Assembly: GCF_012271785.1 (NCBI RefSeq) | Contig: NZ_JAAWVT010000001.1 | Coordinates: 1,054,001-1,118,000 of the forward strand | Reading direction: 5' to 3' | Source: Paeniglutamicibacter terrestris | Lineage (GTDB): Bacteria > Actinomycetota > Actinomycetes > Actinomycetales > Micrococcaceae | DNA: 64,000 nucleotides | Shown: positions 19,990 through 39,537 of the stretch, piece after piece | Layout: each line of letters opens with the position of its first letter | Position numbering within the stretch: position 1 is the stretch's first letter | The notes under the pieces: generated by a model | Database searches by the model: none | What the model was told of the DNA's origin: nothing | What the model saw: only the letters and a program-made list of their open reading frames with translations | Made by a program: the position numbers and the translations under genes

Positions 19990-20742
19990 TTACTTTTGCG
20001 GGCGCACTCCCGAGCCGATCCAGCGGTAGCGGTGTTCCGGACGTCCCGGGGCGCCATACTTCGCACGCAGTTCGGTCATCCCGCGCCCGGTCATCATCTC
20101 CAGGTATCTCCGAGCGCTGACTCGCGAGATTCCACAGATTTCGGAGATCTCGCTGGCCGAGAGATCCCCGGCATCACCCGCCTTCAATGCCTCGCGCAGC
20201 GCCTGGCCCACCAACTGGACCGTCGGTTGAGAGAACCCCTTGGGCAACGGCGCGTCCTCTCGCTCGGCAGTTCCCGTCGAACGATCCTCGCGGCGCTTGT
20301 CCGGGCCCCCGGCGCGGAGCATGGAGTCAATGTCTCCCTGGTCAAGCGTCGGACCACTGCGCTCCGCGGCCTCGGCCTTGGAGGTTCGAAACGCTTCGAG
20401 TCTGCGGTTGAAGTCACTCACGGTAAAGGGTTTGACGAGGTAATCATCAACGCCGCGGCCCACAGCGAAGCGCACGGTATCGCGCTCACTGGCGGCGGTG
20501 ATCATAATGACGCCCGTGTTGTACCCGCTGCCACGCAGATCTTCCAGCACCTGCAGGCCGTCCATATCGGGCAGGTGCACATCGAGCAGGATCAGGTCGA
20601 CTCGGCCCTCCTCAAGGAAAGCCAGCACCGGTCCGCCGCGGTCCAGCACGCCCGCCACCACAAACCCATCCAACGCACCCACATAGCGGGAGTGGAGGAG
20701 TGCAATATCCGGATCGTCGTCGACTATCAATGTCCTAATCAT
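19990..20742 (-). CDS. CitB/DcuR-type response regulator
   Basis: 250 residues. The receiver domain has acidic DDD at 8-10, phospho-acceptor Asp54 (LLDVHLPDMDG) and Lys in YLVKPF. The C-terminal domain contains a helix-turn-helix (LSASEISEICGISRVSARRYLEMM) typical of the CitB family. Its start overlaps the kinase stop as ATGA. It should activate tricarboxylate or dicarboxylate transport genes; the divergent tctCBA genes are the obvious target. DNA binding is probably at AT-rich sequence upstream of tctC. Confidence 0.88.
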   Translation of the reverse strand: MIRTLIVDDDPDIALLHSRYVGALDGFVVAGVLDRGGPVLAFLEEGRVDLILLDVHLPDMDGLQVLEDLRGSGYNTGVIMITAASERDTVRFAVGRGVDDYLVKPFTVSDFNRRLEAFRTSKAEAAERSGPTLDQGDIDSMLRAGGPDKRREDRSTGTAEREDAPLPKGFSQPTVQLVGQALREALKAGDAGDLSASEISEICGISRVSARRYLEMMTGRGMTELRAKYGAPGRPEHRYRWIGSGVRPQK

Positions 20743-22337
20743 GCCTGTTCCTCAGCTCGATGACCCGGCAACATGCTGGCTGCGGACCAATTCCATTCCA
20801 CGGTAATTTTGGCCCCGCCCAGCTCCCCGGTGGCCACCGACACCGTACCTGCACGTCGCCGAATGACCCGGTCAACCAGTGCCAGCCCAATGCCGCGGCC
20901 GACACCGGCCTTGCTACTCACCCCGCGACGAAAGATCTCAGCAACGGCATCCGAGGCAATGCCCGGCCCACTGTCTTCCACACAAATCATCAAACGCTCC
21001 GGCCCGGCACTCAACAGTAGCCGCACCGCTCCGCCATCACCTGCGGCCTCGATCGCGTTACTGAGCAGGTTTCCCACCACCGTCAGGGTGTCCTCGTCGG
21101 CCCGCCACTCCGGCTCGGTCTCGGACTCCGGATCCACCAGCAGCCGAACCCCTGCTTCGCGGGCCCCCGCCGCATTGGCGCCAACAAGACCCGAGAGCGC
21201 GGGATCCTTCAGCACCCCCGCGTCGACGCCACGGGCGGCTCCGCTGATTCGCTCCAGATAGGCGGCAGCCTCCCCCGGCTCGCCAAACGACAGATAACCC
21301 GAAAGGACGTGCAAGCGGTTGGCGAATTCATGGGCCTGCGAACTCAAGGCGTCGGCAAGACTTCGCTGACCCTTCAATTCGCGCAGGGTCGATTCTAATT
21401 CGGTCCGGTCCTGAAGGGTCAATGTTCGACCCAGCGATTTACCCCCAGCCAGTGCCTCGCGACGGGTTGCCACCAGAATGCGTTCCCCCGAGAGGACATA
21501 CTGGGTTTGCTCGGCTTCCGGGGCTTCGCTACTGAGCTGCGCATGGACGTTCGGATCGAGCACGTCCGCGGCCCTGGCACCCAGAACCTCACCTTCAAGC
21601 CCCAGCAATCGCCGAGCCTCGTCATTGACCAGGGTCAATCTACCCTGGGTATCAACGCCCAGAACACCATCGTGCACACTGAACAGCAGCGCCTGCTGCG
21701 ACTGCAGCAAGCCCGCGACAGCCTCGGGCTCCACCCCATAGATCCGCCGGCGGACAACACGGGCCGTCAGCGCCGAAGCAATCGTTCCCAGCGCCGCAGC
21801 ACCCAGGATCCAGGGGGCGACATCTCCAACGATTTCCAGCAGTTCCCCACGGATCTCGCTCTGCAGAATCCCCACGGAGACGGTCCCGACGATTTTCCCC
21901 TCAAACCACACCGGTTCCTTGGCCCGCAGCGTCACACCCTGTGGCCCAACCTCTGTGCCGCGGAACGATTCCCCGGCTCGCACCGGGTCGTGATCCGATG
22001 ACACCTTCTCCCCGATGCGCTCCGGATCCGGGTGAGCCACGCGAATCCCTGCCAGGTTCGCCACCGTGACGAACTGGACACCGGAAACCGACGTCGCAAG
22101 ATCCGCGATCGGTGCGATCACCTCCGTGGCCTCGGGGCTGCCCAAATGCGATTGAACCGCCTCTTGGGCCGCGATTTGCACCGCCACCGTGTACACCCGA
22201 TCGAAGGCGACCTCCTGGGTTCGATGGTCCTCGAAGACCAGGATCACGACGGACACCGCGCCCATCAGCCCCAGCACGATTCCCAGCTGCATTGCCAGCA
22301 ACTGTGCCCGCCTGCGGTGTTTTGATAGGGAAAGCAC
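20739..22337 (-). CDS. CitA/DcuS-type sensor histidine kinase
   Basis: 532 residues, starting at GTG. One membrane helix lies near 16-32, an extracytoplasmic sensor of about 135 residues follows (CitA/DcuS PAS-like; the family binds citrate or C4-acids there), then a second helix near 170-195, a cytoplasmic PAS, the phospho-acceptor helix LSSQAHEFANRLHVLSGYL, and a HATPase domain with NLLSNAIEA and DSGPGI. It is coupled to the response regulator by ATGA and diverges from tctCBA. It probably senses the substrate of TctC and TcuA. Confidence 0.88.
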   Translation of the reverse strand: MLSLSKHRRRAQLLAMQLGIVLGLMGAVSVVILVFEDHRTQEVAFDRVYTVAVQIAAQEAVQSHLGSPEATEVIAPIADLATSVSGVQFVTVANLAGIRVAHPDPERIGEKVSSDHDPVRAGESFRGTEVGPQGVTLRAKEPVWFEGKIVGTVSVGILQSEIRGELLEIVGDVAPWILGAAALGTIASALTARVVRRRIYGVEPEAVAGLLQSQQALLFSVHDGVLGVDTQGRLTLVNDEARRLLGLEGEVLGARAADVLDPNVHAQLSSEAPEAEQTQYVLSGERILVATRREALAGGKSLGRTLTLQDRTELESTLRELKGQRSLADALSSQAHEFANRLHVLSGYLSFGEPGEAAAYLERISGAARGVDAGVLKDPALSGLVGANAAGAREAGVRLLVDPESETEPEWRADEDTLTVVGNLLSNAIEAAGDGGAVRLLLSAGPERLMICVEDSGPGIASDAVAEIFRRGVSSKAGVGRGIGLALVDRVIRRRAGTVSVATGELGGAKITVEWNWSAASMLPGHRAEEQA

Positions 22338-22397
22338 GTCGATTCGAGCCCCTTCGATTTCTCGTTAACTTTGTTTTCTTTATTGTTCTTATGACCT

Positions 22398-22420
22398 AAA
22401 GCACATTTTCGCTGTGCTTT
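22398..22420. promoter_or_regulatory. perfect inverted repeat between the kinase gene and tctC
   Basis: AAAGCACA-N7-TGTGCTTT, in an AT-rich stretch 42 bp before the tctC start. A candidate operator for the response regulator or a catabolite regulator. Confidence 0.5.
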
Positions 22421-22461
22421 GCATCACCACTCTGACACCTTAGTGGTCGAGGGACCTGCCA

Positions 22462-23484
22462 ATGACACCCGGTCCACCACCCATGAGATTACGGATGAAA
22501 ATGAGCAAGAGCATAATCAAGAAGACCCTATACGGTGCCGTTGTCGCCGTCGTGGCAGGTCTGGCCCTGGTCAATGCGGCAGCAAGTGGTGGTGAGTCGA
22601 CCGCACGGTCAAAGCTCGTCCTCATGGCTCCGGCAGCCCCCGGCGGCGGGTGGGACGGTTTTGCCCGCGAGTCGCAGCAGGCCATGAAGTCCGGCAGCGT
22701 CGTTAACAACGCCCAGGTCGTCAACGTGCCGGGTGCCGGTGGAACCATCGGCTTGAGTCAATTTGTCCAGATGGAAGGCCGTCACGACATGTTGATGGTC
22801 ACCGGCGGAGTCATGGTCGGCGCCATTGAGCTCTCCAATTCCGAGACGACCTTCGAGGACATCGTTCCCATTGCCCGGCTCGCCGATGACTACGCGGTGC
22901 TGGTAGTTCCCGCCAAATCTGAATTCAAAACCCTCGATGACTTCACCGAGCGATGGAAGGCGAATCCCGGAGGAACATCAATCTCCGGTGGCTCGCTGGG
23001 GTCCATCGACCACCTACTGACCGGCTTGGTGGCACAAAAGATCGGCATTGATCCGATCAAAACCAACTACATCGCGTATTCCGGTGGCGGCGAGGCACTG
23101 ACCTCGATGCTTTCCGGAACGACCGTCGGCGGGATGTCGGGCTACAACGAAGTAGCCGATCAAATCGAATCCGGCAGCCTGCGCGCCCTGGCAATTTCCT
23201 CGGAAGAGCGCCTGCCCGGTGTGGATATCCCGACCTTCAAGGAACAAGGCGTTGACGCGGCGATGGCCAACTGGCGCGGTGTCGCCGCAGCTCCGGGCAT
23301 CACCGAGGAGCAAAAGCAGGAATTTGTGGACATCGTTACCGAATTTCGCCAGACCGAACACTGGCAGGGTGCGCTGGAACGCAACAGCTGGACGGACAGT
23401 TTCATGACCGGTGGCGAATTTGAAGAATTCATTGACTCCGAGGTCGCCGTGACCAAGGAAATCGTGGAAGGGCTTGGACTGTGA
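22462..23484 (+). CDS. tctC: tripartite tricarboxylate transporter substrate-binding protein TctC
   Basis: 340 residues. The signal peptide has a rather long basic N-region (MTPGPPPMRLRMKMSKS) and a hydrophobic core ending near AAAS. The mature domain has the Bug/TctC fold: APGGGWDGFAR, VNVPGAGGTIGL, GSIDHLLTG, and GGEALTSMLSG. GAGGGA 7 bp upstream supports the 22462 start; ATG at 22495 is an alternative. It captures a tricarboxylate outside the cell. Its stop overlaps the tctB GTG. Confidence 0.9.
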   Translation: MTPGPPPMRLRMKMSKSIIKKTLYGAVVAVVAGLALVNAAASGGESTARSKLVLMAPAAPGGGWDGFARESQQAMKSGSVVNNAQVVNVPGAGGTIGLSQFVQMEGRHDMLMVTGGVMVGAIELSNSETTFEDIVPIARLADDYAVLVVPAKSEFKTLDDFTERWKANPGGTSISGGSLGSIDHLLTGLVAQKIGIDPIKTNYIAYSGGGEALTSMLSGTTVGGMSGYNEVADQIESGSLRALAISSEERLPGVDIPTFKEQGVDAAMANWRGVAAAPGITEEQKQEFVDIVTEFRQTEHWQGALERNSWTDSFMTGGEFEEFIDSEVAVTKEIVEGLGL

Positions 23485-24122
23485 AAACCACCAATGACGC
23501 CACCGCCACCGTGCGGAGCGCAGAGGACTACCCGGTGCGTATCACCAGCTTCTGGTCGGGCCGAAGCGAGCTAATCGTCCCAGCCCTGGTCTTCGCACTG
23601 GCCGGCTTCCTGACTTACGGAACTGCGACCATGGACGTGATGGGCACCAGTATTCCGGGACCGCAGTTCTTCCCCACCATCGTCTGCGTGCTTTTGTTCG
23701 TCGTGGCGGCCATCCACACGGTGCAGATCCTTCGCACTCGTCGCTTCCCTCAGGAGGAAAGCGAAGGGCAGAACGCCGATTTCTCCACCGACTTGCTCGG
23801 CGACCTCGCCGACACGGAGCGTAGCTCCATCTATGGGGCAACTACTACGCCATCGGCCACCGGAAAGCGGAAGGCCTACTCGGACTGGAAGACACTGGGC
23901 ATGACCGTGGGAGCAATTGCCGCGTTCATCCTGGCACTGCCCGTACTGGGCTGGATCCTCAGTGCAGCCGGCCTGTTCTGGGTCATCTGCCGCGCATTGG
24001 GAAGCCGACGTCCGTTATTCGACCTCAGCGTCGCCATTCTCTTCTCCTCGGTCATTCAGCTGGCCTTTAATGCCGGGCTCGGCCTCAACCTGCCCTCCGG
24101 TTTCCTGGAAGGACTGATCTGA
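23481..24122 (+). CDS. tctB: tripartite tricarboxylate transporter small membrane protein TctB
   Basis: 213 residues, with GTG overlapping the tctC stop. About four hydrophobic segments: two N-terminal (LIVPALVFALAGFLTYG and FFPTIVCVLLFVVAAIH), then a polar loop of about 60 residues, then two C-terminal. This is the TctB/DUF1468 layout. The loop is longer than in many TctB proteins. It forms the membrane complex with TctA, whose gene follows after 1 bp. Confidence 0.88.
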   Translation: MKTTNDATATVRSAEDYPVRITSFWSGRSELIVPALVFALAGFLTYGTATMDVMGTSIPGPQFFPTIVCVLLFVVAAIHTVQILRTRRFPQEESEGQNADFSTDLLGDLADTERSSIYGATTTPSATGKRKAYSDWKTLGMTVGAIAAFILALPVLGWILSAAGLFWVICRALGSRRPLFDLSVAILFSSVIQLAFNAGLGLNLPSGFLEGLI

Positions 24123-24123
24123 C

Positions 24124-25668
24124 ATGGATTCTATTTCCCTGCTCATGGAGGGCTTCTCGCAGGCCCTAACGCCCATAAATCTCATGTGGGTGGTGATCGG
24201 TGCGATCCTCGGAACGGCCGTGGGCGTTTTGCCCGGGCTCGGTTCGGCCATGGCCGTCGCATTGCTGCTTCCCATTACTTTTTCTCTTGATCCGACCGCG
24301 GCATTCATCATGTTTGCCGGCGTCTACTTTGGTGGTCTTTTCGGGGATTCGACCTCCGGGATTCTGCTTAATACACCAGGCAATTCATCCGCCATCGCCT
24401 CCACCTTCGAGGGCCATCGCATGGCACTTGATGGCAGAGCGGCGAAGGCCCTGGCCACCGCGGCCATGGGAGCCTTCATCGGTGGTCTCATTGCCACCAC
24501 GGTGGTCGTTTTCTTCGCCCCGGTGCTCGTGAAGATGGCAACGGCATTCGGTCCCGCCGAATACTTCGCGCTCGCGGTCTTCGCTTTCCTCGCTATTTCC
24601 TCGGTGGTCTCCGATTCCGTGGTCAAGGGCCTGATGTCCCTGGGCATCGGTCTAGTCCTTGCCCTGGTCGGCGTCGACGGCCCCTCCGGTACGCCCCGCT
24701 TCACCCTCGGTATGCCGCAGCTCTTCGACGGCATGTCCATCGTGGTGATCACCGTCGGGTTGCTGGCACTGGGTGAAGTCCTGCATATCGCCTCACGTAT
24801 CCACCGCGACGGGACCGCCGTCCGCATTGAATCCAAGGGCCGCCCGCGGCTGGAGCTCAGCGACATCCGTAGGGCCATGCCCGCTTGGTTGCGTGGCACC
24901 GCATTCGGCGTTCCCTTCGGCGTTATTCCCGCCGGCGGTTCCGAGGTTCCCACGTTCATGGCCTATGGCCTGGAAAAGAAGCTCGCTGCCCGCAACGGCG
25001 ACACCGATTTTGGTAGCACCGGGTCGATCCGTGGCGTTGCTGCCCCGGAAGCCGCGGCTAATGCCACGGCCGGCACCGCCATGGGAGCGCTTCTTGCTCT
25101 CGGCCTGCCTACCTCGGCAACGGCTGCCATCATGTTGGCTGCTTTCCAGCAGTATGGGATGCAGCCGGGCCCGTTGCTGTTCGAACGCAGCGGTCCGATG
25201 GTCTGGACGTTGCTCGCGTCACTGTTCATTGGTCTGGTTGTCCTGCTGGTCTTGAATATGCAGTTCGCGGTGCTCTGGGCCAAGCTGCTGCTCATCCCCC
25301 GGCACTACCTCTACGCGGGCATCGCGGTGCTCTCGGTACTGGGTGTCTACGCGATCAGTTCCTCGATCATCGACCTGTGGATCCTGTTGGGCGTGGGCCT
25401 GCTGGGCTTCATGATGCGCCGCTACAAGTTCCCGCTCGCCCCGGTACTGATCGCGGTCATTCTTGGCCCGCTGGCCGAGACGGAATTGCGACGCGCACTG
25501 ACTGTCTCGGAAGGCAATCTGTCGATCCTGATCGACAGCCCGGTCACCATGGTGCTGTACGGACTGTTGGCCATTACCTTGGTGATCACCGGCATCCAGC
25601 ACGTGCGTCACAGCAGGGCTGCTCGAAGCACGGCACCGAAATTCGATGCCGATCGGCTCGGCGTCTAG
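24124..25668 (+). CDS. tctA: tripartite tricarboxylate transporter large membrane protein TctA
   Basis: 514 residues with about 11-12 hydrophobic segments. Two TctA signatures are clear: GVLPGLGSAMAVALLLP near the N terminus, and the second copy GVIPAGGSEVPTFMAYG with PEAAANATAGTAMGALLALGLP. These form the internal-repeat transport core. It is driven by an ion gradient and fed by TctC. It is the last gene of tctCBA; a 22-bp hairpin follows. Confidence 0.93.
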   Translation: MDSISLLMEGFSQALTPINLMWVVIGAILGTAVGVLPGLGSAMAVALLLPITFSLDPTAAFIMFAGVYFGGLFGDSTSGILLNTPGNSSAIASTFEGHRMALDGRAAKALATAAMGAFIGGLIATTVVVFFAPVLVKMATAFGPAEYFALAVFAFLAISSVVSDSVVKGLMSLGIGLVLALVGVDGPSGTPRFTLGMPQLFDGMSIVVITVGLLALGEVLHIASRIHRDGTAVRIESKGRPRLELSDIRRAMPAWLRGTAFGVPFGVIPAGGSEVPTFMAYGLEKKLAARNGDTDFGSTGSIRGVAAPEAAANATAGTAMGALLALGLPTSATAAIMLAAFQQYGMQPGPLLFERSGPMVWTLLASLFIGLVVLLVLNMQFAVLWAKLLLIPRHYLYAGIAVLSVLGVYAISSSIIDLWILLGVGLLGFMMRRYKFPLAPVLIAVILGPLAETELRRALTVSEGNLSILIDSPVTMVLYGLLAITLVITGIQHVRHSRAARSTAPKFDADRLGV

Positions 25669-29895: not shown

Positions 29896-30187
29896 AGGCC
29901 TCCGCCCTCGCGATATCAGGTGCCGATAAGCATGTGGACAGCCACTCCTTTTCCGCGGGTGGTGCAACACTTCAAGCTGGTCCCGTTCCAGAGCATCCCC
30001 TGTCTGGTAATTCGCGGCGCACCGCCCATCCATGCTCCCCGCCGTGGAACCGGTCGCATTGGTCGAGGACCATGCTCCAGATTTCTGCTGTGCAGAATGT
30101 CTTGGTGTCGGGACGACGGCCGGCCCTACGGTTGATGAAACAGATCACATCGCCGCCCCAGGGTGCGCAGCAGATTCAAGGAGCAGC
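29896..30187. other. gene-free stretch before mobA
   Basis: No coding frame with family similarity. An open frame in register with mobA runs back to 30032 but has shadow-like composition. Presumably it holds the mobA promoter; no clear operator seen. Confidence 0.5.
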
Positions 30188-32101
30188 ATGCAGTTCTACC
30201 AAGATGGCTACCGCCCGGGCGACCCGGATATCCGCCGCGCAGCTCCCGGACGCCGCACCCCAGGGACCTTGCCCACCCAGGTCGACGTCCTCATCGCCGG
30301 CACCGGCCCCGCCGGTTCCGTCCTTGCCGCTCAGCTGGCCGAGTTCCCGGACATCTCCACCCTTGTTGTCGAACGCCGCGAAGCAGCCCTCGAGCTGGGC
30401 CACGCTGACGGGGTGGCCTGCCGCACCGTGGAGATGTTCAACGGCTTTGGTCTGGCCGAAGCCCTGATGCGCGAGGCCTACTGGGTTAACGAGACCAGCT
30501 TCTGGGGCCCCGCATCTGGCGACGGGATCGAGCGCACCGGACGGATCCAGGACGTCGCCGACGGCCTCTCCGAATACCCTCACGTGATCGTGAACCAGGC
30601 CCGCATGCAGGACATGCTCTTCGAGCACATGGCCAACTCCCCCAGCCGGCTGGTCCCCGACTACGGACTGGAGCTCATCGACGTGGTGATCGCCGACACC
30701 GGCGACTACCCCGTCACCGCAAGACTGCGCTGCACCGGCGAGAATCCCGGCAACGAGATCACCGTGCAGGCAAAGTATGCGGTGGGCTGCGAGGGCGCGC
30801 GCTCGAACGTGCGCCGCTCGCTGGGCATCAAGATGCAGGGGGATGCCCGTAACCACGCCTGGGGTGTGATGGACATGCTGGCCGTCACCGATTTCCCCGA
30901 CATCCGCCTGAAGTCCGCCATTCAGTCGGCCTCCGGCGGATCCATTCTGCTGATCCCGCGCGAGGGCGGCTATCTGGTGCGGCTTTACGTCGACTTGGGC
31001 GATATCGACCCGGGAGACCGCGAGGCCCGCGGGCGTTTCACCGCCGATTCGGTCATCGAGGCCGCACAAAAGATTCTGCACCCCTACACGCTGGACGTGA
31101 AGGAAATCGCCTGGTGGAGCGTTTACGAGGTGGGCCAGCGCATCGCCGAGCGGTTCGACGACGTGTTGCCCGGGGACCGCGGCACCCGGACCCCGCGCGT
31201 GTTCATCGCCGGGGACGCCTGCCACACGCATAGTGCCAAGGCCGGTCAGGGCATGAATGTGTCCATGCAGGATGGCTTCAATCTGGGCTGGAAGCTGGCG
31301 GCCGTGCTGCAAGGCCGCAGCCCAGAATCCCTGCTGGACACCTACTCCGCCGAACGCCAGGTCATCGCCCAGGAGCTGATCGACTTCGATTTGAAATGGT
31401 CCACCGCGATGGCTGCCAAGCCCAAGGACCCGGCGAACCCTGAGGCCGGGGGCATGGACGCCGCCGAACGCCAGTCCATCTTCACCCAGGGCGGGCGGTT
31501 CACCGCGGGCTTCGCCACCGACTACGCCCCGAGCATGATCACCGGGGAAGACACCCACGAGCACCTGGCCACCGGATTCCCGGTCGGCGAGCGCTTCCAC
31601 TCCTCCGGCGTCATCAGGCTTGCCGATGCCAAGTCGCTGCAGCTCGGGCACCAGGCTCTGGCCGACGGCCGCTGGCGGATCTACGCCTTCGCCGACGCCG
31701 TCCGCCCCGACGCCAAGGATTCGCGTCTGGCCGCATTCAGCACCTACTTGGGGCAGGATCCGTCCTCCCCGGTGCGCACCTTCACCCCGGCGGGTGCCGA
31801 CGACGACGCGGTCTTCGACGTGCGTGCGGTGCTGCAGCAGGGACACCGCGAGGTGGAGCCAGGTGATGTGCCAGCATTCCTCTTCCCACGCAAGGCACCG
31901 CTGGGACTCATCGACTACGAGAAGGTCTTCACCGCCGACGCGGCGAACGATATCTTCGAGGCCCGCGGCATCAACCGTGAGCACGGCGCGATTGTGGTGG
32001 TCCGTCCCGACCAGTACGTGGCTCACGTGCTACCCCTTGATGCCCACGCGGAGCTGGCGAGTTTCTTCGCCGGCATCATGAGCACCCCGACGCTACCGTA
32101 G
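30188..32101 (+). CDS. mobA: 3-hydroxybenzoate 4-monooxygenase MobA
   Basis: 637 residues, the length of phenol-hydroxylase-type flavin monooxygenases. FAD motif GTGPAGSVLAAQ, then ELGHADGVACRTVEMF, GCEGARSNVRR, and the second FAD motif VFIAGDACHTHSAKAGQGMNVSMQD. The N terminus MQFYQDGYRPGDP and the C-terminal thioredoxin-like part match 3-hydroxybenzoate 4-monooxygenase, which makes protocatechuate using NADPH and O2. AAGGAG precedes ATG at 30188 by only 4 bp. It has no adjacent regulator or transporter but would feed pcaHG. Confidence 0.9.
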   Translation: MQFYQDGYRPGDPDIRRAAPGRRTPGTLPTQVDVLIAGTGPAGSVLAAQLAEFPDISTLVVERREAALELGHADGVACRTVEMFNGFGLAEALMREAYWVNETSFWGPASGDGIERTGRIQDVADGLSEYPHVIVNQARMQDMLFEHMANSPSRLVPDYGLELIDVVIADTGDYPVTARLRCTGENPGNEITVQAKYAVGCEGARSNVRRSLGIKMQGDARNHAWGVMDMLAVTDFPDIRLKSAIQSASGGSILLIPREGGYLVRLYVDLGDIDPGDREARGRFTADSVIEAAQKILHPYTLDVKEIAWWSVYEVGQRIAERFDDVLPGDRGTRTPRVFIAGDACHTHSAKAGQGMNVSMQDGFNLGWKLAAVLQGRSPESLLDTYSAERQVIAQELIDFDLKWSTAMAAKPKDPANPEAGGMDAAERQSIFTQGGRFTAGFATDYAPSMITGEDTHEHLATGFPVGERFHSSGVIRLADAKSLQLGHQALADGRWRIYAFADAVRPDAKDSRLAAFSTYLGQDPSSPVRTFTPAGADDDAVFDVRAVLQQGHREVEPGDVPAFLFPRKAPLGLIDYEKVFTADAANDIFEARGINREHGAIVVVRPDQYVAHVLPLDAHAELASFFAGIMSTPTLP

Positions 32102-32308: not shown

Positions 32309-33724
32309 TCAGGAAGCGATGGCTAGCAGCGGGACCAGCAGCGAGGTCACGAACAGCACCAGCGCGCCGCCAAGTCGGTTGGTCAGCGCGGCGAACGGCA
32401 TCAGGTGCATGCGGTTCGCCGCACTGAGCACCGCGACATCCCCGCTGCCCCCGGTGTCGGCCATGACCAGCCCCGGGGTAATGGATGCCTCAACGAAGTT
32501 GAACTTCATGAGCCACCCCAAGAAGCCGGAGGTCAGCGTCGCGATCAGCACCGTGGCAACCGTCAGAACGATGAACTTCGGGTTACTCAACGAGGTAACA
32601 ACCTCGCCCATGTCGATGTAGCTGATACTCACGCCCACTAGCAGTGCCGGAACCATGGTGGCACCCACCATGTCACCCCAGTCAGCGGTGGATTCTTCAA
32701 TATCCTTGGGCAGCCAGCCGAAGATCTTCACGGCGGCCGCAGCAATGATGGTCCAGGCATAGGGGTGCAAGACCTCAAGGAACGAACCGACCAGCTGGCC
32801 GAAGATGAACAGCGCGCCGGCGAATAGCAGGCCCTTGCCCAGCGCAATGAATGAGGAAGCCTCGTTTTTCGGCGGCAGCGACAACTCGGACTTCTTGCCC
32901 TTGATGCGCATCAGCTCTCCGTGGCCATTGAAGCCCACAAAGAACTGCTTGCGACTCTTGCCTAGGCCGTTGTAGATGCCGGCAATGATGATGCAAACGA
33001 TGTTGGCCACCACCACGGCGGACATCAAATCGCCCATGAACGTCGAGGAGTCCAGGCCGGTGCGCGAGGCATACATCTCGCTCATCGGCAGCGCACCCAC
33101 ACCCAGACCGCCGGCCATGATCGGGGCGGCAATAAACAAGATCCCCTCCATAAAACCGAATCCGGTGGCGGCACCCAGCAACCCAATCAGCACAAATGTG
33201 GCCACCAGGCAGCCGACCAGCGGCACCGCAAAGCGCGGTCCGGCCTTCAGCAACAGGGCTCGAGGCATACCCAGGATGGAGCCGGCGATGATCGTGATGA
33301 CAAAGAAGTCCAGGAATCCATGTCCCTTCACGAAGTTCTCCACAACTTCCACGAGGTTCGCCGGCAACAGGTTAAAGGACATGAGCGTCGCGGGGATGAA
33401 GGTGCACAAGACCGTGGGCAGCCCGTAGTCACGTACCACCGGGAAGAGGTTGCCGATCCAGATCAGCAGCCCACCGAGCAGGATGGTGACGGTAAAACCC
33501 GAGAGCATCGAATCCGGGAGCTTGCCGGTGAGCGCGGCGATAAACACCATGAGCGCGAGCACGAGGAACAGTGCTGCCGGAAGACTGGCGATCCGCGGGC
33601 CGCGCGGACCGGGGAAATGCGTGCCGCGTAGCTTGCCCACGCTCGGTTCGACCCTGCGCTGTACGCCGGGTTCCTCGGGGTGTTGTGCAGCAAGGGTGGA
33701 AGCGGAATTTTCAATCTGAGACAT
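32309..33724 (-). CDS. 2-hydroxycarboxylate transporter (2HCT family)
   Basis: 471 residues with about 11-12 hydrophobic segments. It matches the 2HCT family (CitP, MaeP, CimH, CitS): GFGFMEGILFIAAPIMAGGLGVGALPMSEMY contains the first glycine-rich re-entrant motif, and FVEASITPGLVMADTGGSGDVAVLSAANRM the second. Substrates of the family are citrate, malate, lactate or citramalate with Na+ or H+. GAGGAC precedes ATG at 33724. It lies 81 bp downstream of the lyase gene on the same strand, suggesting import of that pathway's hydroxyacid. Confidence 0.87.
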   Translation of the reverse strand: MSQIENSASTLAAQHPEEPGVQRRVEPSVGKLRGTHFPGPRGPRIASLPAALFLVLALMVFIAALTGKLPDSMLSGFTVTILLGGLLIWIGNLFPVVRDYGLPTVLCTFIPATLMSFNLLPANLVEVVENFVKGHGFLDFFVITIIAGSILGMPRALLLKAGPRFAVPLVGCLVATFVLIGLLGAATGFGFMEGILFIAAPIMAGGLGVGALPMSEMYASRTGLDSSTFMGDLMSAVVVANIVCIIIAGIYNGLGKSRKQFFVGFNGHGELMRIKGKKSELSLPPKNEASSFIALGKGLLFAGALFIFGQLVGSFLEVLHPYAWTIIAAAAVKIFGWLPKDIEESTADWGDMVGATMVPALLVGVSISYIDMGEVVTSLSNPKFIVLTVATVLIATLTSGFLGWLMKFNFVEASITPGLVMADTGGSGDVAVLSAANRMHLMPFAALTNRLGGALVLFVTSLLVPLLAIAS

Positions 33725-33805
33725 CGTCGTCCTCGCAGAATGATGGGGCGCACCGGCGCCTGTTTCAGGCATCTCGGCGGGCAGTGGATGGGAGTGTATT
33801 AGGTT

Positions 33806-34684
33806 CTAGTGCCCGGTTAGGGCGTTCACGGGCAGCGCCGCGGAGTTGGACACCGCGTCGCGGCCCAGCTGCACGGCACGGTTCAGTGCCGCTTCGTCGA
33901 TGCCGGTCTCGTGCCCGGCGGCGTGCAGGTGGGCAACAAGTTCCTCGGTGGCCAAGTTGCCCGCGGCACCCGGTGCAAACGGGCAGCCACCGTAGCCGCC
34001 CAACGCGCTATCGAAGCGGGTGATGCCGGCATCTATGGCCGCATCAACAGTGTCCAACGCCTGGCCATGGGCGTTGTGCAGGTGCAGATAGTAGGTCAGC
34101 TCCGGCTCGGCAGCCTGGATGTAACGCACCGAATCCATGAGTCGAGCGGTCGGCGTGGTGCCCAGGGTGTCGGCCAGGCCGATTTGAGTGATGCCCATGT
34201 CCTTGAAGGCGCGCACCACCCGCAACAGGTGCTCCGGATCAATCTCTCCCTCAAAGGGGCAGGTAAACGCGGTCGAGATCCCGGCAAAGAAGTTGATACC
34301 CGGGTGCGCTGCAACATCGGAGGCGAGGGAGGCGAGTGCTTCCTCAACACTGGCCCCAGCGTTTGCACTGCTATGTGCCTGACTGGCGGAGGTCACCACC
34401 TGAATGTCGGTCGCCCCGGCCGCGATAGCACGCACGATCCCCTTGCCATTGAGCGCTAGGGAAGTGAAGCTCGCCCCATTTCTTACCGGCAATCCGGACA
34501 GGACCTCGGCGGCATCCCCCATCTGTGGCACCCGGGCGGGATTCACGAAGGAAGCGACCTCCAGCCGCTTCACGCCGGCGCTAAGTAGGGAATCGACGAT
34601 GGCCAGCTTGTCAGAGGTGGCGACAATGACGTTTTCATCCTGCAAGCCGTCGCGCAGGAAGACGTCGGTGATCTGGATCCGCAT
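33806..34684 (-). CDS. HMG-CoA lyase-family lyase (possible citramalyl-CoA lyase)
   Basis: 292-residue TIM-barrel of the HMG-CoA lyase family. It has the DGLQDE metal-binding start, the LHLHNAHG His pair, and the active-site Cys loop GGCPFAPGAAGNL. It starts 1 bp after the CoA-transferase stop. The family cleaves HMG-CoA to acetyl-CoA and acetoacetate, but (R)-citramalyl-CoA lyase of Chloroflexus aurantiacus belongs here too. With a class III CoA-transferase and a 2-hydroxycarboxylate carrier, cleavage of a citramalyl-CoA-type ester to acetyl-CoA and pyruvate is my preferred reading. Leucine breakdown is the alternative, but none of its other genes are here. Confidence 0.85.
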   Translation of the reverse strand: MRIQITDVFLRDGLQDENVIVATSDKLAIVDSLLSAGVKRLEVASFVNPARVPQMGDAAEVLSGLPVRNGASFTSLALNGKGIVRAIAAGATDIQVVTSASQAHSSANAGASVEEALASLASDVAAHPGINFFAGISTAFTCPFEGEIDPEHLLRVVRAFKDMGITQIGLADTLGTTPTARLMDSVRYIQAAEPELTYYLHLHNAHGQALDTVDAAIDAGITRFDSALGGYGGCPFAPGAAGNLATEELVAHLHAAGHETGIDEAALNRAVQLGRDAVSNSAALPVNALTGH

Positions 34685-34685
34685 G

Positions 34686-35921
34686 TTAGTTGGCCTCCTT
34701 GAGACCCAGTGAGTTGATTTGCTCCGTGCTTAGCCCGGCCAATTCCGCCAGCACCTCATGGGTGTGTTCGCCGAGTTCCGGGCCGATCCAGTTGACGCGG
34801 CCCTCGTGCCCCGGCAATTTGGGAACCACACCGGGGAAGCGGATCAGTTCTGGTTCGTCATCGATGATCACCTCGTGGGTCTGAATCATGTCACGGGCTA
34901 GGTAATGCTCGTCCTTGGCGATCGATGGGGCGTCATAAACGGGCCCGGCGGGCACACCGGCGGCGTCCAGCGCCGTGAGAACATCGGCCAGCGGCATCGA
35001 GGAGGTCCAGTCGGCGATGGCACGATTAAGTTCGGTCTCGCGCGCCCCTCGTCCCTCGGTCGTGAGCAGGGTTTTGTCATCGGCGAGGTCATCGCGGTCG
35101 ATGGCCTTCATGAGGCGAATGAACACCGAGTTAGAGTTACCGCCAATCACCACCTCCAAATCATCCCCGCACGGGTAGGAACCCGTGGGCACCACACCGG
35201 GCAAGGCCCCACCGGTGCGCTTGCGGACCATGCCGTAAGCGTCGTAGTCCGGGACCAAGGACTCGAGTAGGGAGAAAACCCCCTCGTAGAGTGCCACGTC
35301 AACAATCTGCGGGCCTTCGCTCTTGACGCCCTGCGCCTTTTGGAACATCAACATGAGGGCGCCGATGACACCGTAGAGTCCGGAAACGGTATCCCCTACG
35401 CTCGCGGCGGCCCGGCCTGCCGGACGATCCGGTTCGCCGGTGATGTATCGCAGACCGGCGAAGGACTCGGCGGAGCTGCCGAAGCCTGCACGATTTTTGT
35501 ACGGGCCGGTTTGTCCGTAACCGGAGATGCGCACCATGACCAGATTGGGGTTCACTGCGTGCAGCTCTTCGGGACCAAGACCCCACTTTTCTAGAGTGCC
35601 CGGGCGGAAGTTCTCGATGACCACGTCGGTCTTTGCCACGATGCTCAGCACCGCCTCCCGACCGAGTTCGCTGCGCAAATCCAAAGCGACAGATTTCTTA
35701 TTCCTCCCGAGGGTACGGAAGAGCATCGAGGTGGTGCCGCGCGTTTTCCGCCAGTCGCGCAATTCGTCACCGCCGTTCGGCTTTTCGATCTTGATGACTT
35801 CGGCACCGAAGTCACCGAAGAGTCGGGCGGCAAACGGGGCCGCAATGAAGCTGCCCAATTCCAGTACGCGGATCCCGTCAAGCGGCAAGGTACTGCCCGG
35901 GAGGTGAAGATTCTCTGTCAT
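34686..35921 (-). CDS. class III CoA-transferase (CaiB/BaiF family)
   Basis: 411 residues. LDGIRVLELGSFIAAPFAARLFGDFGAEVIKIEKP at the N terminus is the family block, and the catalytic Asp is expected in SVGDTVSGLYG. The family moves CoA between carboxylic acids through an aspartyl-CoA anhydride. AAAAGGGC precedes ATG at 35921. It is first gene of an operon with the lyase and probably the 2HCT carrier, diverging from an IclR regulator. It probably activates the imported hydroxyacid with CoA from succinyl-CoA. Confidence 0.9.
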   Translation of the reverse strand: MTENLHLPGSTLPLDGIRVLELGSFIAAPFAARLFGDFGAEVIKIEKPNGGDELRDWRKTRGTTSMLFRTLGRNKKSVALDLRSELGREAVLSIVAKTDVVIENFRPGTLEKWGLGPEELHAVNPNLVMVRISGYGQTGPYKNRAGFGSSAESFAGLRYITGEPDRPAGRAAASVGDTVSGLYGVIGALMLMFQKAQGVKSEGPQIVDVALYEGVFSLLESLVPDYDAYGMVRKRTGGALPGVVPTGSYPCGDDLEVVIGGNSNSVFIRLMKAIDRDDLADDKTLLTTEGRGARETELNRAIADWTSSMPLADVLTALDAAGVPAGPVYDAPSIAKDEHYLARDMIQTHEVIIDDEPELIRFPGVVPKLPGHEGRVNWIGPELGEHTHEVLAELAGLSTEQINSLGLKEAN

Positions 35922-36187
35922 GGTGATTGCCCTTTTCTCGGTGACGCCCCTAGCGACTTCCCATCTAATGGGATACGCTTCTCTGTGAGCAGGAAAACCA
36001 TAACAAGTGATCCACGGCACAGCAAGGGTTTGGCGGATCCAAAAAATGAAACCGGCGACCACCTGCCTCAAGAACCAGACAAACAGTGACGTCACCAGCC
36101 AATGTCGATGCCGGGGCAGTACGTAGGACACTTTCACGACAACAAGCCAAATGCTCGTCCGGCAGCCCACCAGCAGGAGAAAGCCCC

Positions 36188-36844
36188 ATGACCGAATCGA
36201 CAACCACCAGCAATCGCATGCTTGAACGAGTGGCGTTGGTCCTTGATGCACTCGACGACTCCTCCGCATCGGCCAGCGAATTAGCCAGACGCACGGGATT
36301 GTCGGTCTCAACAGTTCACCGCCTGGCACTATCCATGGTTGACTACGGCTTTTTGCGTCGCGTTGCGGACGGGAACTTCAAGCTCGGGCAGCGCTTTGTC
36401 CGCTCTGCTTTAGAATCGATCGCCTTGCCGATCCTCACGGAGCTGCGCAACAAAACCGGGGAAACCAGTCAACTATGGATACGCCGCGGCGATCGACGAT
36501 TCTGCCAAATCACGGTGGACAGTCAACATGAGCTCAAGGCAACCCTTCCGGTGGGCTCAAGCTTGGACTTGCCCAACGGGTCTAGCGGGCGGCTACTCAC
36601 CCATGATCTCGAGGCGCTGGAATCCGTGGCGGAACATGGCTGGGTCGAATCAGTGGGGCGCCGCACCCCGGGCTTGGGTTCCGTTAGCGCTCCGGTCATG
36701 CTGCGTGACCAGATGATTGCCACGCTCTGCTTGGCGGTGCCGCTGAGCCGTGTGACCGAATCCCCCGGTCGGGACTTTGGTGAATCCGTCGCACGTGCGG
36801 CGCTACAAATTGGTACCGAATTGGACATGAGCAAGAAGCTGTAG
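36188..36844 (+). CDS. IclR family regulator
   Basis: 218 residues. N-terminal winged helix (SASELARRTGLSVSTVHRLALSMVDYGFLRR) and a GAF-like IclR effector domain from about 85, ending earlier than the typical 250 residues. AGGAGA lies 7 bp before ATG at 36188. It diverges from the CoA-transferase/lyase/2HCT genes and is the likely local regulator. It ends 18 bp from the convergent LAL gene. Confidence 0.87.
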   Translation: MTESTTTSNRMLERVALVLDALDDSSASASELARRTGLSVSTVHRLALSMVDYGFLRRVADGNFKLGQRFVRSALESIALPILTELRNKTGETSQLWIRRGDRRFCQITVDSQHELKATLPVGSSLDLPNGSSGRLLTHDLEALESVAEHGWVESVGRRTPGLGSVSAPVMLRDQMIATLCLAVPLSRVTESPGRDFGESVARAALQIGTELDMSKKL

Positions 36845-36862: not shown

Positions 36863-39181
36863 TTAGAGACCCCATGCCCGCGCGTTGTCTAGGGCATGTT
36901 CCATGTCCGAAGCCTCCAGTTTCCGGTAGAGGCTACGCATTTGGGTCTTGACCGTGTTTTCGGACCGGTAACCTGCCTCGGCAATTTGTCGTCGACTCAT
37001 TCCTGCACGCAGCTGCCTCAGGACCTCCTGTTCGCGTGCGCTGAGTACCGGTCGCTTGGGCATCGGTGCGGGCGCGAGATCCAGCGCATAACCTAGGCGT
37101 TGAAACTCTTCCGGCTCAAGTACCACCGAACGCCCGACCTCGGACCACCCGGGAACCATGCCCAAAATCGACAGCTCGTAAAGTACTCCCGATTCTTGGT
37201 GCAGTCGCTGTAAACGTTGCACCAGCTCTGGAGTGAGGCCTTGAGGGTTCCGTGCGGCGAGATCCAAATACAGGGCAAGGTTCCCCCTGCGCCGCAAACC
37301 CGGGGTAACCGGGACATCTTCAAGGGCAGCCAGCGCCGCGTCGGGATTTCCGTTCAACAGGTGGCCGAGCGCCACGAGCAGTGGATCCCTATTTTCGGCT
37401 CCGCCTCCACGGCGCATCACGCCGCCTTGCAGAATCTCCACCAGCATCAGCGTATCGTCGAACAGCCGCCGGGCCAGCGGGGAGGCCGCCGTGTAGCGAC
37501 GCTCCGCCCGGAGCGAGGAGATCAGCGTCTTCGCGGCCTCAAAATTGCCAACATTGATCTTTTGCAGCGCCAGTTGCTGGGCCTGCACGGGCCAGAATTC
37601 GTCGTGGTCCGGCTTCGGAGGCAACACATCCATGGTCTGTTCAAAGCCCTCATAGTCGAGGCGAGCCAGCGCCAGATAAGCGCGGGCCATGGTTGCACAG
37701 CGGGCCACCAGGCCCCGGCCACAGCTAACATCCCCGATGGTGGCATCATGCTCGGCCAACCAGCGGGCCGCGGCAGCGCTGTCACCTTCCAGTACGTTGA
37801 GCAGGGCCAACTTTCCGGTCACGTCCGCGAGCAGGACGGCCTTCCCAGAGATCTGTGCCCAGTGGAAGCCCGACTCATAGGCCTGGCGCGCTTCGGAATC
37901 TTTACCCGCTAGATATAGAGAAATTCCTGCTTGGAGTTCGGTCAATGCCACCAGCGCCGGATTGAGCCTTTGGGCATCGAGTCCCCGATGCAGCGTCGCT
38001 CGCAAGCGTGCCGCAGCAGTCCCAGCTTCGATATACAACCCCGACATTCGAAGATTAACCGTCTCCAGCATGCCCACGGTCAGTGCGTGGGCATTGGGCT
38101 TGTTAGCCAGCCGTAGCGCATCCTGATGCAGGCGTTGGGCAGTGTGGTTTGTCGCGTAGTCCGGCTCCAACCCGGGGGGCCGAAGAGAAATTGACTGCCT
38201 GTCCACCGAACCGAGAATACGCAGGCCAACTCGCATATATTCGGTCTGTTCCGCAATGAAGTGCGGAATCTTTGACGCAATAATGTCCAGTTGCCGGGGA
38301 TTGCCGATGAAAACATCCACCCAATGCTCCAGCAACAGGTCCAGCAACGCCGGCCAACGCCGATGGGCCACGGCAGAATCCACGGCCGCCTCCACCCCAT
38401 GGATTGCCGCCATGGCGTTGACGGCAGCTCTTTCCAGAGCCACAACACGTCCGCTGCCACGCAATCCGACGCGTTCCACCAATATCTGCCGCACCATCCG
38501 CGGCATCATCCAGCCGCCTAGACCGTCGGGCTGCACCAGACCCGCCTGGACGAGATCCTCCAGCGTGTGCACCACCGGGGAAAATTCGCCATAGAAGGCC
38601 TCAACCGTGCGCCCGTCGAATAGGGGCAAGAACGCGGCGTCGCCCAAAGCCCCGGTGGGGTCACGGTGAGCCAGCCAGCGGGCCAATCCTCCCGCGATGC
38701 TCTGCCGGGCGCGAGTGCTGGCCTGCGGATCATCGGAAAGGATGAGCAGGGCCGCCAGCCATCCCCCAGTCAATTGGTGGAGGCGGTGTGCATCGGGCTG
38801 ATCGGCCCGCGTTTCCGAGCCAACAAACTGCCCGATTTCCGCGAGATTCAACAACAGGTCCCCTTGATTGGCGACGAGGCACGGGGTACGCGAGGTCAGA
38901 GCCCAGATCGAAGCCGCTGGCGGCAGGATGACGGCAAGGTGCAGCCCGGGATCCGAATGAAGCCGTTGCACCAGGTGATCCACTGCGAGGACCACGTCAA
39001 TTCCCCCGCCGGACCAGTCAAGTACTTCGCCGGAGCGGTTCCCGAGCCACGAGCGCGCAAAATACCCGCGGCCTGTCCCGGCCGCGGACCTGATGAAGAG
39101 CAACCTGCAGTTTCCATCGGCCCGCGAGAGGAATCTGGGCAGGGCAGGATGAACATCCGGCAGACCGGAGGCAGCCCCCAT
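36863..39181 (-). CDS. large LuxR-type (LAL/MalT-like) regulator
   Basis: 772 residues. The C-terminal LuxR helix-turn-helix (LSAREQEVLRQLRAGMSRRQIAEAGYRSENTVKTQM) is clear. The middle is helical and TPR-like. The N-terminal ATPase-like part is degenerate: where MalT has a Walker A lysine, this protein reads SAAGTGRGYF (about 32-41), with no GKT/GKS. GGAG 4 bp before ATG at 39181 fixes the start; the open frame runs 102 codons further. Targets are unknown; neighbours are IclR (convergent) and SulP (divergent). Confidence 0.82.
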   Translation of the reverse strand: MGAASGLPDVHPALPRFLSRADGNCRLLFIRSAAGTGRGYFARSWLGNRSGEVLDWSGGGIDVVLAVDHLVQRLHSDPGLHLAVILPPAASIWALTSRTPCLVANQGDLLLNLAEIGQFVGSETRADQPDAHRLHQLTGGWLAALLILSDDPQASTRARQSIAGGLARWLAHRDPTGALGDAAFLPLFDGRTVEAFYGEFSPVVHTLEDLVQAGLVQPDGLGGWMMPRMVRQILVERVGLRGSGRVVALERAAVNAMAAIHGVEAAVDSAVAHRRWPALLDLLLEHWVDVFIGNPRQLDIIASKIPHFIAEQTEYMRVGLRILGSVDRQSISLRPPGLEPDYATNHTAQRLHQDALRLANKPNAHALTVGMLETVNLRMSGLYIEAGTAAARLRATLHRGLDAQRLNPALVALTELQAGISLYLAGKDSEARQAYESGFHWAQISGKAVLLADVTGKLALLNVLEGDSAAAARWLAEHDATIGDVSCGRGLVARCATMARAYLALARLDYEGFEQTMDVLPPKPDHDEFWPVQAQQLALQKINVGNFEAAKTLISSLRAERRYTAASPLARRLFDDTLMLVEILQGGVMRRGGGAENRDPLLVALGHLLNGNPDAALAALEDVPVTPGLRRRGNLALYLDLAARNPQGLTPELVQRLQRLHQESGVLYELSILGMVPGWSEVGRSVVLEPEEFQRLGYALDLAPAPMPKRPVLSAREQEVLRQLRAGMSRRQIAEAGYRSENTVKTQMRSLYRKLEASDMEHALDNARAWGL

Positions 39182-39537
39182 TTGACTCCTGCTCCTCATG
39201 CACTTTTTCCCGGCCCGACGCCGGGCTATTTGGTACCTCATCCTAAGCGGCAATCCCCCTATCCTGCCCTCCTCATGCCGGTATAAATCGGACTCCGATT
39301 CCGCTGCCGGAGTCGCTGTGGAAATCAGCCGCGCAAGCGTACCGAGCCGCCGCTGGCGAAGTCTCAGGTGGGCGCTGATAATCCGATCCATTCCACCCAC
39401 CGATCGAGCTGCCCGTACCTCCCCTAGAATTGGACTTGATTCCGGTTTTCCCGCACTGCCACGGTCTATCAGTTCTTCGAACGCCACGTGTCCTTCGGGA
39501 TTAGCCGATCCACCGCACCTGCCTTTTCGAACGGACC
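39182..39537. other. gene-free stretch between the LAL and SulP genes
   Basis: 356 bp. Open minus-strand frame continuous with the LAL gene, but without a ribosome site or family similarity. Presumed divergent promoters; I see no strong operator or hairpin. Confidence 0.5.

What the first reader, a model, noticed from the sequence alone, without database searches (positions are those of the whole stretch)
32309..36844. Possible 2-hydroxyacid (citramalate-type) uptake, CoA activation and cleavage cluster
A 2HCT carrier, an HMG-CoA-lyase-family enzyme and a class III CoA-transferase lie in tandem, with a divergent IclR regulator. None of the leucine-degradation genes that normally accompany HMG-CoA lyase are present. 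In Chloroflexus aurantiacus a class III CoA-transferase and an HMG-CoA-lyase homologue make and cleave (R)-citramalyl-CoA. Adding a hydroxycarboxylate carrier gives a complete three-gene route from external citramalate (or a similar acid) to acetyl-CoA and pyruvate.
Basis: partly seen in the sequence, partly recalled or inferred. Interest (0 to 1): 0.7.

Follow-up and report, generated by a model that had tools for sequence, protein, structure and literature searches.

The report
Uptake-and-splitting operon for malate-like acids
Soil bacteria related to Arthrobacter carry a compact operon that probably imports a malate-like acid, tags it with coenzyme A and splits it with an enzyme that databases call HMG-CoA lyase but that looks different from the leucine-degrading enzyme; which acid it uses is still open.

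Summary
The genes are real: class III CoA-transferase, HMG-CoA-lyase-like enzyme and 2HCT carrier in one direction, IclR regulator divergent. The lyase does not look like a leucine-pathway HMG-CoA lyase: it lies in a clade of CoA-transferase-linked lyases (support 100/99) and lacks pocket residues kept in nearly all leucine-linked ones (Arg165 38/38, Tyr167 37/38), with catalytic residues intact. In Micrococcaceae 18 of 20 orthologous lyases have the carrier within 240 bp. A palindrome, TCCCA-N5-TGGGA, lies 37 bp before the operon and before many orthologous ones (33 matches in 48 loci, 0.8 expected). It also precedes a dehydrogenase pair (isopropylmalate/tartrate-dehydrogenase-like plus D-2-hydroxyacid dehydrogenase) that in some relatives stands beside an orthologous carrier without the CoA genes. 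Import, CoA activation and cleavage are the best reading, by inference; citramalate as substrate is not established. Such dehydrogenases oxidise secondary alcohols and citramalate is tertiary; structure 6nds, titled with CoA and 3-methylmalate, falls outside the leucine clade. A (2R)-malate such as 3-methylmalate, tartrate or D-malate fits better; citramalate is the main rival. Nothing was assayed. A new variant of a known kind.

The parts
32309..33724 (-). 2HCT-family 2-hydroxycarboxylate carrier, 471 aa (alternative start at 33772, 487 aa)
   Evidence: PF03390 E 3e-125; CitS structures E 6e-46; R428, S405 and Y348 of CitS kept, R402 replaced by T and N186 by L
33806..34684 (-). HMG-CoA-lyase-like retro-Claisen lyase, 292 aa, not of the leucine type
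34686..35921 (-). class III (CaiB/Frc) CoA-transferase, 411 aa
   Evidence: PF02515 E 5e-103; PDB kin 4ed9, 10uh, succinate-HMG CoA-transferase 9br7; start from orthologs
35922..36187 (.). divergent intergenic region
   Evidence: sequence
35959..35973 (.). predicted IclR-type operator TCCCA-N5-TGGGA, 37 bp before the CoA-transferase start
   Evidence: only match in 64 kb, 0.06 expected; 33 matches in 48 other loci, 0.79 expected
36188..36844 (+). IclR-family regulator, divergent
   Evidence: PF09339 and partial PF01614; best NCBIfam match BhcR, 60 bits, far below its cut-off of 350

Best explanation
This is a regulated catabolic operon for a 2-hydroxydicarboxylic acid of the malate family. The 2HCT carrier imports the acid. 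The class III CoA-transferase moves CoA onto it from a donor such as succinyl-CoA or acetyl-CoA. The HMGL-family lyase then splits the 3-hydroxyacyl-CoA by a retro-Claisen reaction into an acyl-CoA and a 2-oxo acid. The divergent IclR protein controls the operon through TCCCA-N5-TGGGA. In relatives an orthologous carrier and the same operator also serve a second, dehydrogenase route, so the acid most likely has a secondary (2R)-hydroxyl: a 3-substituted malate such as 3-methylmalate or tartrate, or D-malate. The products would then be glyoxylate plus propionyl-, glycolyl- or acetyl-CoA. Shown by computation: gene identity, conserved linkage, a lyase clade distinct from leucine enzymes, altered pocket, shared predicted operator. 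Inferred: uptake, CoA activation, cleavage, regulator binding, and the substrate.
For: Linkage: 18 of 20 Micrococcaceae lyases lie 79-240 bp from a 2HCT gene; in the order sample 6 of 7 2HCT genes sit beside a CoA-transferase/lyase pair. A natural lyase-CoA-transferase fusion occurs in Roseomonas. Lyase identity: leucine-linked enzymes keep R165 38/38, Y167 37/38, N140 38/38, D236 38/38; CoA-transferase-linked ones keep them in 6, 4, 8 and 22 of 67; R41, H233, H235 and N275 are invariant in both. Trees. Shared operator before the CoA-transferase (20 of 33 matches) and before the IPMDH-like gene (9 of 33). Carriers beside CoA genes, beside both sets, or beside dehydrogenases only are interleaved in one 27-row clade (SH-aLRT 100) with matching binding residues. 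6nds, whose title names CoA and 3-methylmalate, groups outside the leucine clade with a CoA-transferase-linked lyase.
Against: The window genome has no ortholog of the IPMDH-like or D-2-hydroxyacid dehydrogenase genes (best hits 38% and 31% identical), so the link between the routes comes from relatives only. A shared carrier and operator do not prove one substrate, since 2HCT carriers can be broad. G821 has the dehydrogenases beside its carrier and the CoA genes elsewhere without a carrier (L176, L177). L171 has no operator match at up to one mismatch, and its dehydrogenases lie 6-7 kb from the carrier. Four CoA-transferase-linked lyases (L009, L158, L159, L161) lie on the leucine side of the tree (two of them also). 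The ligand of 6nds is known to me only from the entry title and may come from the crystallisation mix. PMC5719810 (passages) counts 2HCT carriers of Brevibacterium as citrate importers. I found no measured activity for an enzyme of this clade.
Confidence: 0.57

Rival explanations
1. One reading: the acid is (R)-citramalate, activated and cleaved to acetyl-CoA and pyruvate. The dehydrogenases in relatives would serve a different acid carried by the same carrier.
For: HMGL-family enzymes act on (S)-HMG-CoA, whose geometry matches (R)-citramalyl-CoA by the correspondence given in PMC6689899 (passages). CoA-transferase/lyase pairs of other lyase lineages sit beside a LeuD-LeuC/aconitase-like protein, an ICL/PEP-mutase enzyme or MmgE/PrpD, all compatible with alkylmalate chemistry (recalled).
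Against: Shared operator and interchangeable carriers with an IPMDH/tartrate-dehydrogenase-like enzyme, which should not oxidise a tertiary alcohol. Pyruvate, the product expected from citramalate, needs neither the D-2-hydroxyacid dehydrogenase nor the TPP enzyme that recur in relatives.
Confidence: 0.25
2. The acid is a larger 2- or 3-alkylmalate such as isopropylmalate, cleaved to acetyl-CoA and a branched 2-oxo acid that the TPP enzyme of relatives decarboxylates.
For: IPMDH-family enzyme and TPP enzyme in the extended clusters of relatives.
Against: The IPMDH-like enzymes carry (P/A)(E/N)GLELGAQV(E/D)MR in place of the leucine-rich isopropyl-contacting loop (roles recalled). The window genome lacks these genes.
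Confidence: 0.08
3. An ordinary HMG-CoA lyase of leucine or HMG catabolism that happens to lie beside a transporter.
For: NCBIfam subfamily model NF004283 is passed (269.7, cut-off 246); the closest fold is human HMG-CoA lyase. HMG itself could be a substrate, since 9br7, a succinate-HMG CoA-transferase, is among the kin of the CoA-transferase.
Against: Pocket signature and phylogeny; no leucine genes among the neighbours scanned; a 2HCT carrier is rare in the phylum (1 of 396 genomes, the window's own) and tightly linked.
Confidence: 0.05

Closest known systems
Leucine-pathway HMG-CoA lyase (human 2cw6, P. aeruginosa 2ftp, Brucella 1ydn)
   Different: Window lyase has D37, G140, F165, G167, G201, N236, A237 where the human enzyme has E, N, R, Y, S, D, T; separate clade; CoA-transferase and carrier in place of carboxylase genes
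6nds, 'HMG-CoA lyase' of Acinetobacter baumannii with CoA and 3-methylmalate (entry title)
   Same: Also lacks R165, Y167 and S201; groups outside the leucine clade
   Different: 35% identical; its nearest row is a different CoA-transferase-linked lyase, L157
(R)-citramalyl-CoA lyase and citramalate CoA-transferase of Chloroflexus (recalled, not seen in any call)
   Different: Sequence not obtained; no comparison made
Itaconate degradation ict-ich-ccl (P. aeruginosa, PMC12290011, passages)
   Same: CoA-transferase, then a citramalyl-CoA lyase giving acetyl-CoA and pyruvate
   Different: That lyase is (S)-specific and, by recall, of the CitE/PF03328 family; the pathway has a hydratase; the window operon has neither
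Tartrate dehydrogenase route (P. putida 3flk; Agrobacterium ttu genes, recalled)
   Same: IPMDH-family dehydrogenase plus a hydroxyacid reductase, as in route B of relatives
   Different: The route B enzyme tested is below the TTC cut-off (273.6 against 470.4) and has Phe for the conserved Tyr; the window lacks route B
CitS citrate/sodium symporter (PMC4718727, passages)
   Same: 2HCT family, GGXG motifs, R428
   Different: R402 to T and N186 to L

Membership tests
Leucine-pathway HMG-CoA lyase | HMGL TIM-barrel fold and catalytic residues (R41, D42, H233, H235, C266, N275; roles recalled) | tested here: met
Leucine-pathway HMG-CoA lyase | Pocket residues conserved in leucine-linked enzymes (R165, Y167, N140, S201, D236, T237) | tested here: not met
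   F, G, G, G, N, A in the window; leucine-linked rows 38, 37, 38, 36, 38, 38 of 38
Leucine-pathway HMG-CoA lyase | Groups with solved leucine-type enzymes | tested here: not met
Leucine-pathway HMG-CoA lyase | HMG-CoA cleavage activity | not testable with these tools
   needs assay
(R)-citramalyl-CoA lyase of Chloroflexus type | Sequence kinship to Rcl | not tested
(R)-citramalyl-CoA lyase of Chloroflexus type | Adjacent class III CoA-transferase (feature recalled) | tested here: met
   1 bp gap; 30 of 30 loci
(R)-citramalyl-CoA lyase of Chloroflexus type | Citramalyl-CoA cleavage | not testable with these tools
   needs assay
2HCT carriers (TC 2.A.24) | PF03390 match, GGXG motifs, substrate arginine R428 of CitS | tested here: met
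2HCT carriers: CitS citrate symporter | Second citrate arginine R402 and N186; NCBIfam CitS cut-off | tested here: not met
   T and L at these sites; 264 bits against 600
Class III CoA-transferase | PF02515 full length; Asp aligned with 4ed9 in a D-x2-(S/T)-G stretch | tested here: met
   (that this Asp is the catalytic one is recalled)
IclR regulators | IclR HTH plus effector domain | tested here: met
   the effector domain match is partial (best stretch covers profile 8-71 of 174)
Tartrate dehydrogenase (route B gene of relatives) | NCBIfam TTC cut-off; conserved general-acid Tyr (role recalled) | tested here: not met
   273.6 against 470.4 for L066; Phe in 13 of 13 module-linked sequences

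The most novel reading that the evidence does not exclude
The clade is a CoA-dependent lyase for tartrate or 3-methylmalate: the CoA-transferase makes tartryl-CoA or 3-methylmalyl-CoA and the HMGL-type enzyme splits it to glyoxylate plus glycolyl-CoA or propionyl-CoA. It would be a catabolic route running in parallel with an oxidative IPMDH-type route under the same operator, the two heads being swapped freely behind one carrier during evolution.
Probability: 0.3. Interest if true: 0.65.

Novelty: new variant of a known kind. Interest (0 to 1): 0.5.

Why it matters
A set of bacterial proteins that carry the annotation 'hydroxymethylglutaryl-CoA lyase' appears to be a different family with another substrate, recognisable by the loss of Arg165/Tyr167 and by an adjacent class III CoA-transferase. 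A gene pair with the same two annotations rises about 2-fold in one and 8- to 9-fold in another plant-associated bacterium exposed to root exudate (PMC5789663, passage; its sequence was not compared with the window's), so such modules may be a general route for plant acids. One small assay panel would settle the substrate.

Tried and rejected
Rejected: (1) Citrate as the carrier's substrate: R402 of CitS is lost, and the window holds a TctA gene with a cache-domain sensor kinase at 20.7-25.7 kb. This is an argument, not a test. (2) Leucine role: see membership test. (3) The paralogous module L006 as a source of the substrate clue: its lyase is only 33% identical, it has a GntP carrier and no operator match. 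(4) Other operator sites in the genome: 9 sites in all, 2 for the control pattern. Of the 8 outside the window operon I inspected 5; each lies inside an ORF and not before a gene, by my reading. 3 were not inspected. (5) Single-sequence AF2 model: poor (pLDDT 47.5), replaced by the alignment-based one. (6) Consensus promoter and terminator scans gave nothing above chance: 1 found against 0.8, and 2 against 3.9. (7) Papers: in the listings of all ten searches I saw no paper that assigns a substrate to a CaiB/HMGL/2HCT operon; only CC0, CC BY and CC BY-SA PubMed Central papers were searched. PMC3150298 (passages) lists the Mcl lyase of Chloroflexus; a search of its text for 'CoA lyase' gave nothing on an HMGL-type enzyme, so the Chloroflexus precedent rests on recall. 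Passages of PMC7970118 and PMC4213383 held nothing on this module.

Limits: genomes and loci are related, so counts are not independent. The 48 loci include comparison loci without the module. L065 and L178 seem to be the same contig (both 60,253 bases), so 32 of the 33 operator matches are distinct. The expected number 0.79 assumes independent bases. The 131-row tree is a quick one with long branches; the 44-row tree uses a subset that I chose from those rows. Seven duplicate or fragment rows were dropped before the pocket table and trees. The row labelled 'Legion' in my scripts is 6nds, in truth Acinetobacter baumannii. On this second check I corrected the wording on carrier identity (61-74%, not near-identical), on the genes read by eye and on the root-exudate pair, added the results against my reading, and lowered the main confidence from 0.58 to 0.57.
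Full report
What is there. Window 32309-36844 holds, on the minus strand, a class III CoA-transferase (34686-35921), an HMGL-like lyase (33806-34684) and a 2HCT carrier (32309-33724), with an IclR regulator divergent (36188-36844). The genome is closest to Paeniglutamicibacter (lyase 88% and 86% identical in two named species).

Conservation. In 30 loci around close relatives of the lyase (28, plus L008 and L013) the CoA-transferase and the lyase are present in 30 of 30. A carrier is present in 29: 20 of 2HCT type and 9 of a MatC/CitM-like type; the remaining contig ends. Among 295 Micrococcaceae genomes, 20 have the lyase (E at most 1e-80) and 36 the carrier (E at most 1e-20); 19 have both and 18 lyases lie 79-240 bp from a carrier. 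The exceptions are G821 (genes 1.8 Mb apart) and G704 (a MatC/CitM-like carrier instead). The 2HCT family is rare in the phylum: 1 of 396 sampled genomes, the window's own. In the order sample 6 of 297 genomes hold 7 carriers; six of the seven lie beside a CoA-transferase/lyase pair, including a second, distantly related 2HCT/lyase combination in L145-L148. The seventh, L163, lies beside a different IPMDH-family dehydrogenase.

Regulation. A palindrome TCCCA-N5-TGGGA lies at 35959-35973. It is the only one in 64 kb, 0.06 expected. In 48 other loci (736,689 bases, some of them comparison loci without the module) there are 33, against 0.79 expected for independent bases: 20 lie 37-62 bp before the matched start of the CoA-transferase, 9 lie 37-110 bp before that of an IPMDH-like gene, 2 lie before the carrier and the TPP/IclR genes of L172, and 2 lie in L074. 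One-mismatch forms sit at the expected places in L050, L063, L064, L176 and L180; no match at up to one mismatch is seen in the Rhodococcus, Amycolatopsis, L144-L148 or L006 loci. That IclR binds it is inferred.

A second route behind the same carrier. An IPMDH-family dehydrogenase (7 of 30 loci), a D-2-hydroxyacid dehydrogenase (5 of 30) and a TPP enzyme (10 of 30) recur beside the module; L007 carries the first two and another type of TPP enzyme. The IPMDH-like type is rare: 1 of 396 genomes of the phylum sample at E up to 1e-100. In L170, L172 and L176, and more loosely in L171, the carrier (61-74% identical to the window's) stands with these genes and without CoA-transferase or lyase. The genomes behind L170-L172 have no lyase at E up to 1e-80; that behind L176 has the CoA-transferase and lyase elsewhere, without a carrier (L177). 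Carriers of the contexts are interleaved in one clade of 27 rows (SH-aLRT 100; 14 with CoA genes, 9 with both, 3 with dehydrogenases only, 1 unclassed; the 'both' label of L144 rests on a 35% homolog). In that clade the sites aligned with CitS 186, 402, 405 and 428 are L, T, S and R, except I at 186 in L144 and L180 and S at 402 in L180; site 348 is Y or F; L054 is cut short. So the acid should suit both routes. IPMDH-family enzymes oxidise a secondary (2R)-alcohol (recalled); citramalate is tertiary. The IPMDH-like enzymes have their own loop and Phe in place of the conserved Tyr in 13 of 13; the one tested scores near both isopropylmalate and tartrate dehydrogenases without passing either cut-off. 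The D-2-hydroxyacid dehydrogenase is nearest glyoxylate reductases and phosphoglycerate dehydrogenases. These facts fit tartrate or 3-methylmalate better than citramalate, but the window genome has no ortholog of the two dehydrogenases, and its best TPP relative is 46% identical and lies elsewhere.

Wider contexts. Other CoA-transferase/lyase pairs, with more distant lyases, occur with TTT carrier proteins and an ICL/PEP-mutase enzyme (L158, L159, L161), with TRAP carriers (L160, L011), with MmgE/PrpD and acyl-CoA dehydrogenase genes (L011/L155), and as a lyase-CoA-transferase fusion beside a LeuD-LeuC-like protein (L162). In two beta-rhizobia a pair with these annotations rises in root exudate: 7.86- and 8.95-fold in one, 2.12- and 1.98-fold in the other; the authors ascribed it to isoprenoid catabolism (PMC5789663, passage). 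In M. tuberculosis leucine breakdown uses a CitE-like lyase without sequence kinship to HMG-CoA lyase, Rv2498c (PMC6689899, passages), so the lack of leucine genes nearby is by itself weak evidence; this genome has five PF03328 matches.

Verdict. The general mechanism (import, CoA activation, cleavage, IclR control) is the best reading. The named substrate is not established, and evidence from relatives leans to a secondary-alcohol malate. The work is comparative only; no activity was measured.

Noticed in passing
G000:C1:1237728-1242369 (locus L006:8729-13370): A paralogous module in the same genome: GntP permease, CoA-transferase, HMGL-like lyase (33% identical) and IclR.
   Followed up: partly
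window 20739-25668: TctA-type tricarboxylate carrier gene (24124-25668) and a sensor kinase with a single cache domain (20739-22337), probably a citrate uptake system near the operon.
   Followed up: no
window 30032-32101: Phenol 2-monooxygenase-type flavoprotein just downstream; a relative (56-89% identical) is near the module in L048, L051 and L056.
   Followed up: no
window 36863-39487: Large LuxR-type regulator beside the IclR gene, also next to the module in L047 and L048.
   Followed up: no
L162:5974-8241: Natural fusion of HMGL-like lyase and class III CoA-transferase in Roseomonas, beside a fused LeuD-LeuC/aconitase-like protein.
   Followed up: partly
L066:3413-4525 and 12 others: IPMDH-like dehydrogenases with Phe in place of the conserved active-site Tyr in 13 of 13, a possible subfamily that oxidises without efficient decarboxylation.
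   Followed up: partly
L163:7676-12499, L179: A distant 2HCT carrier beside another IPMDH-family dehydrogenase, a lactone-hydrolase-like amidohydrolase and an aldehyde dehydrogenase.
   Followed up: no
G771:C1:3922611-3923198: In a genome of the same genus only residues 276-471 of the carrier match and no lyase passes the cut-off, which suggests a decaying module.
   Followed up: no
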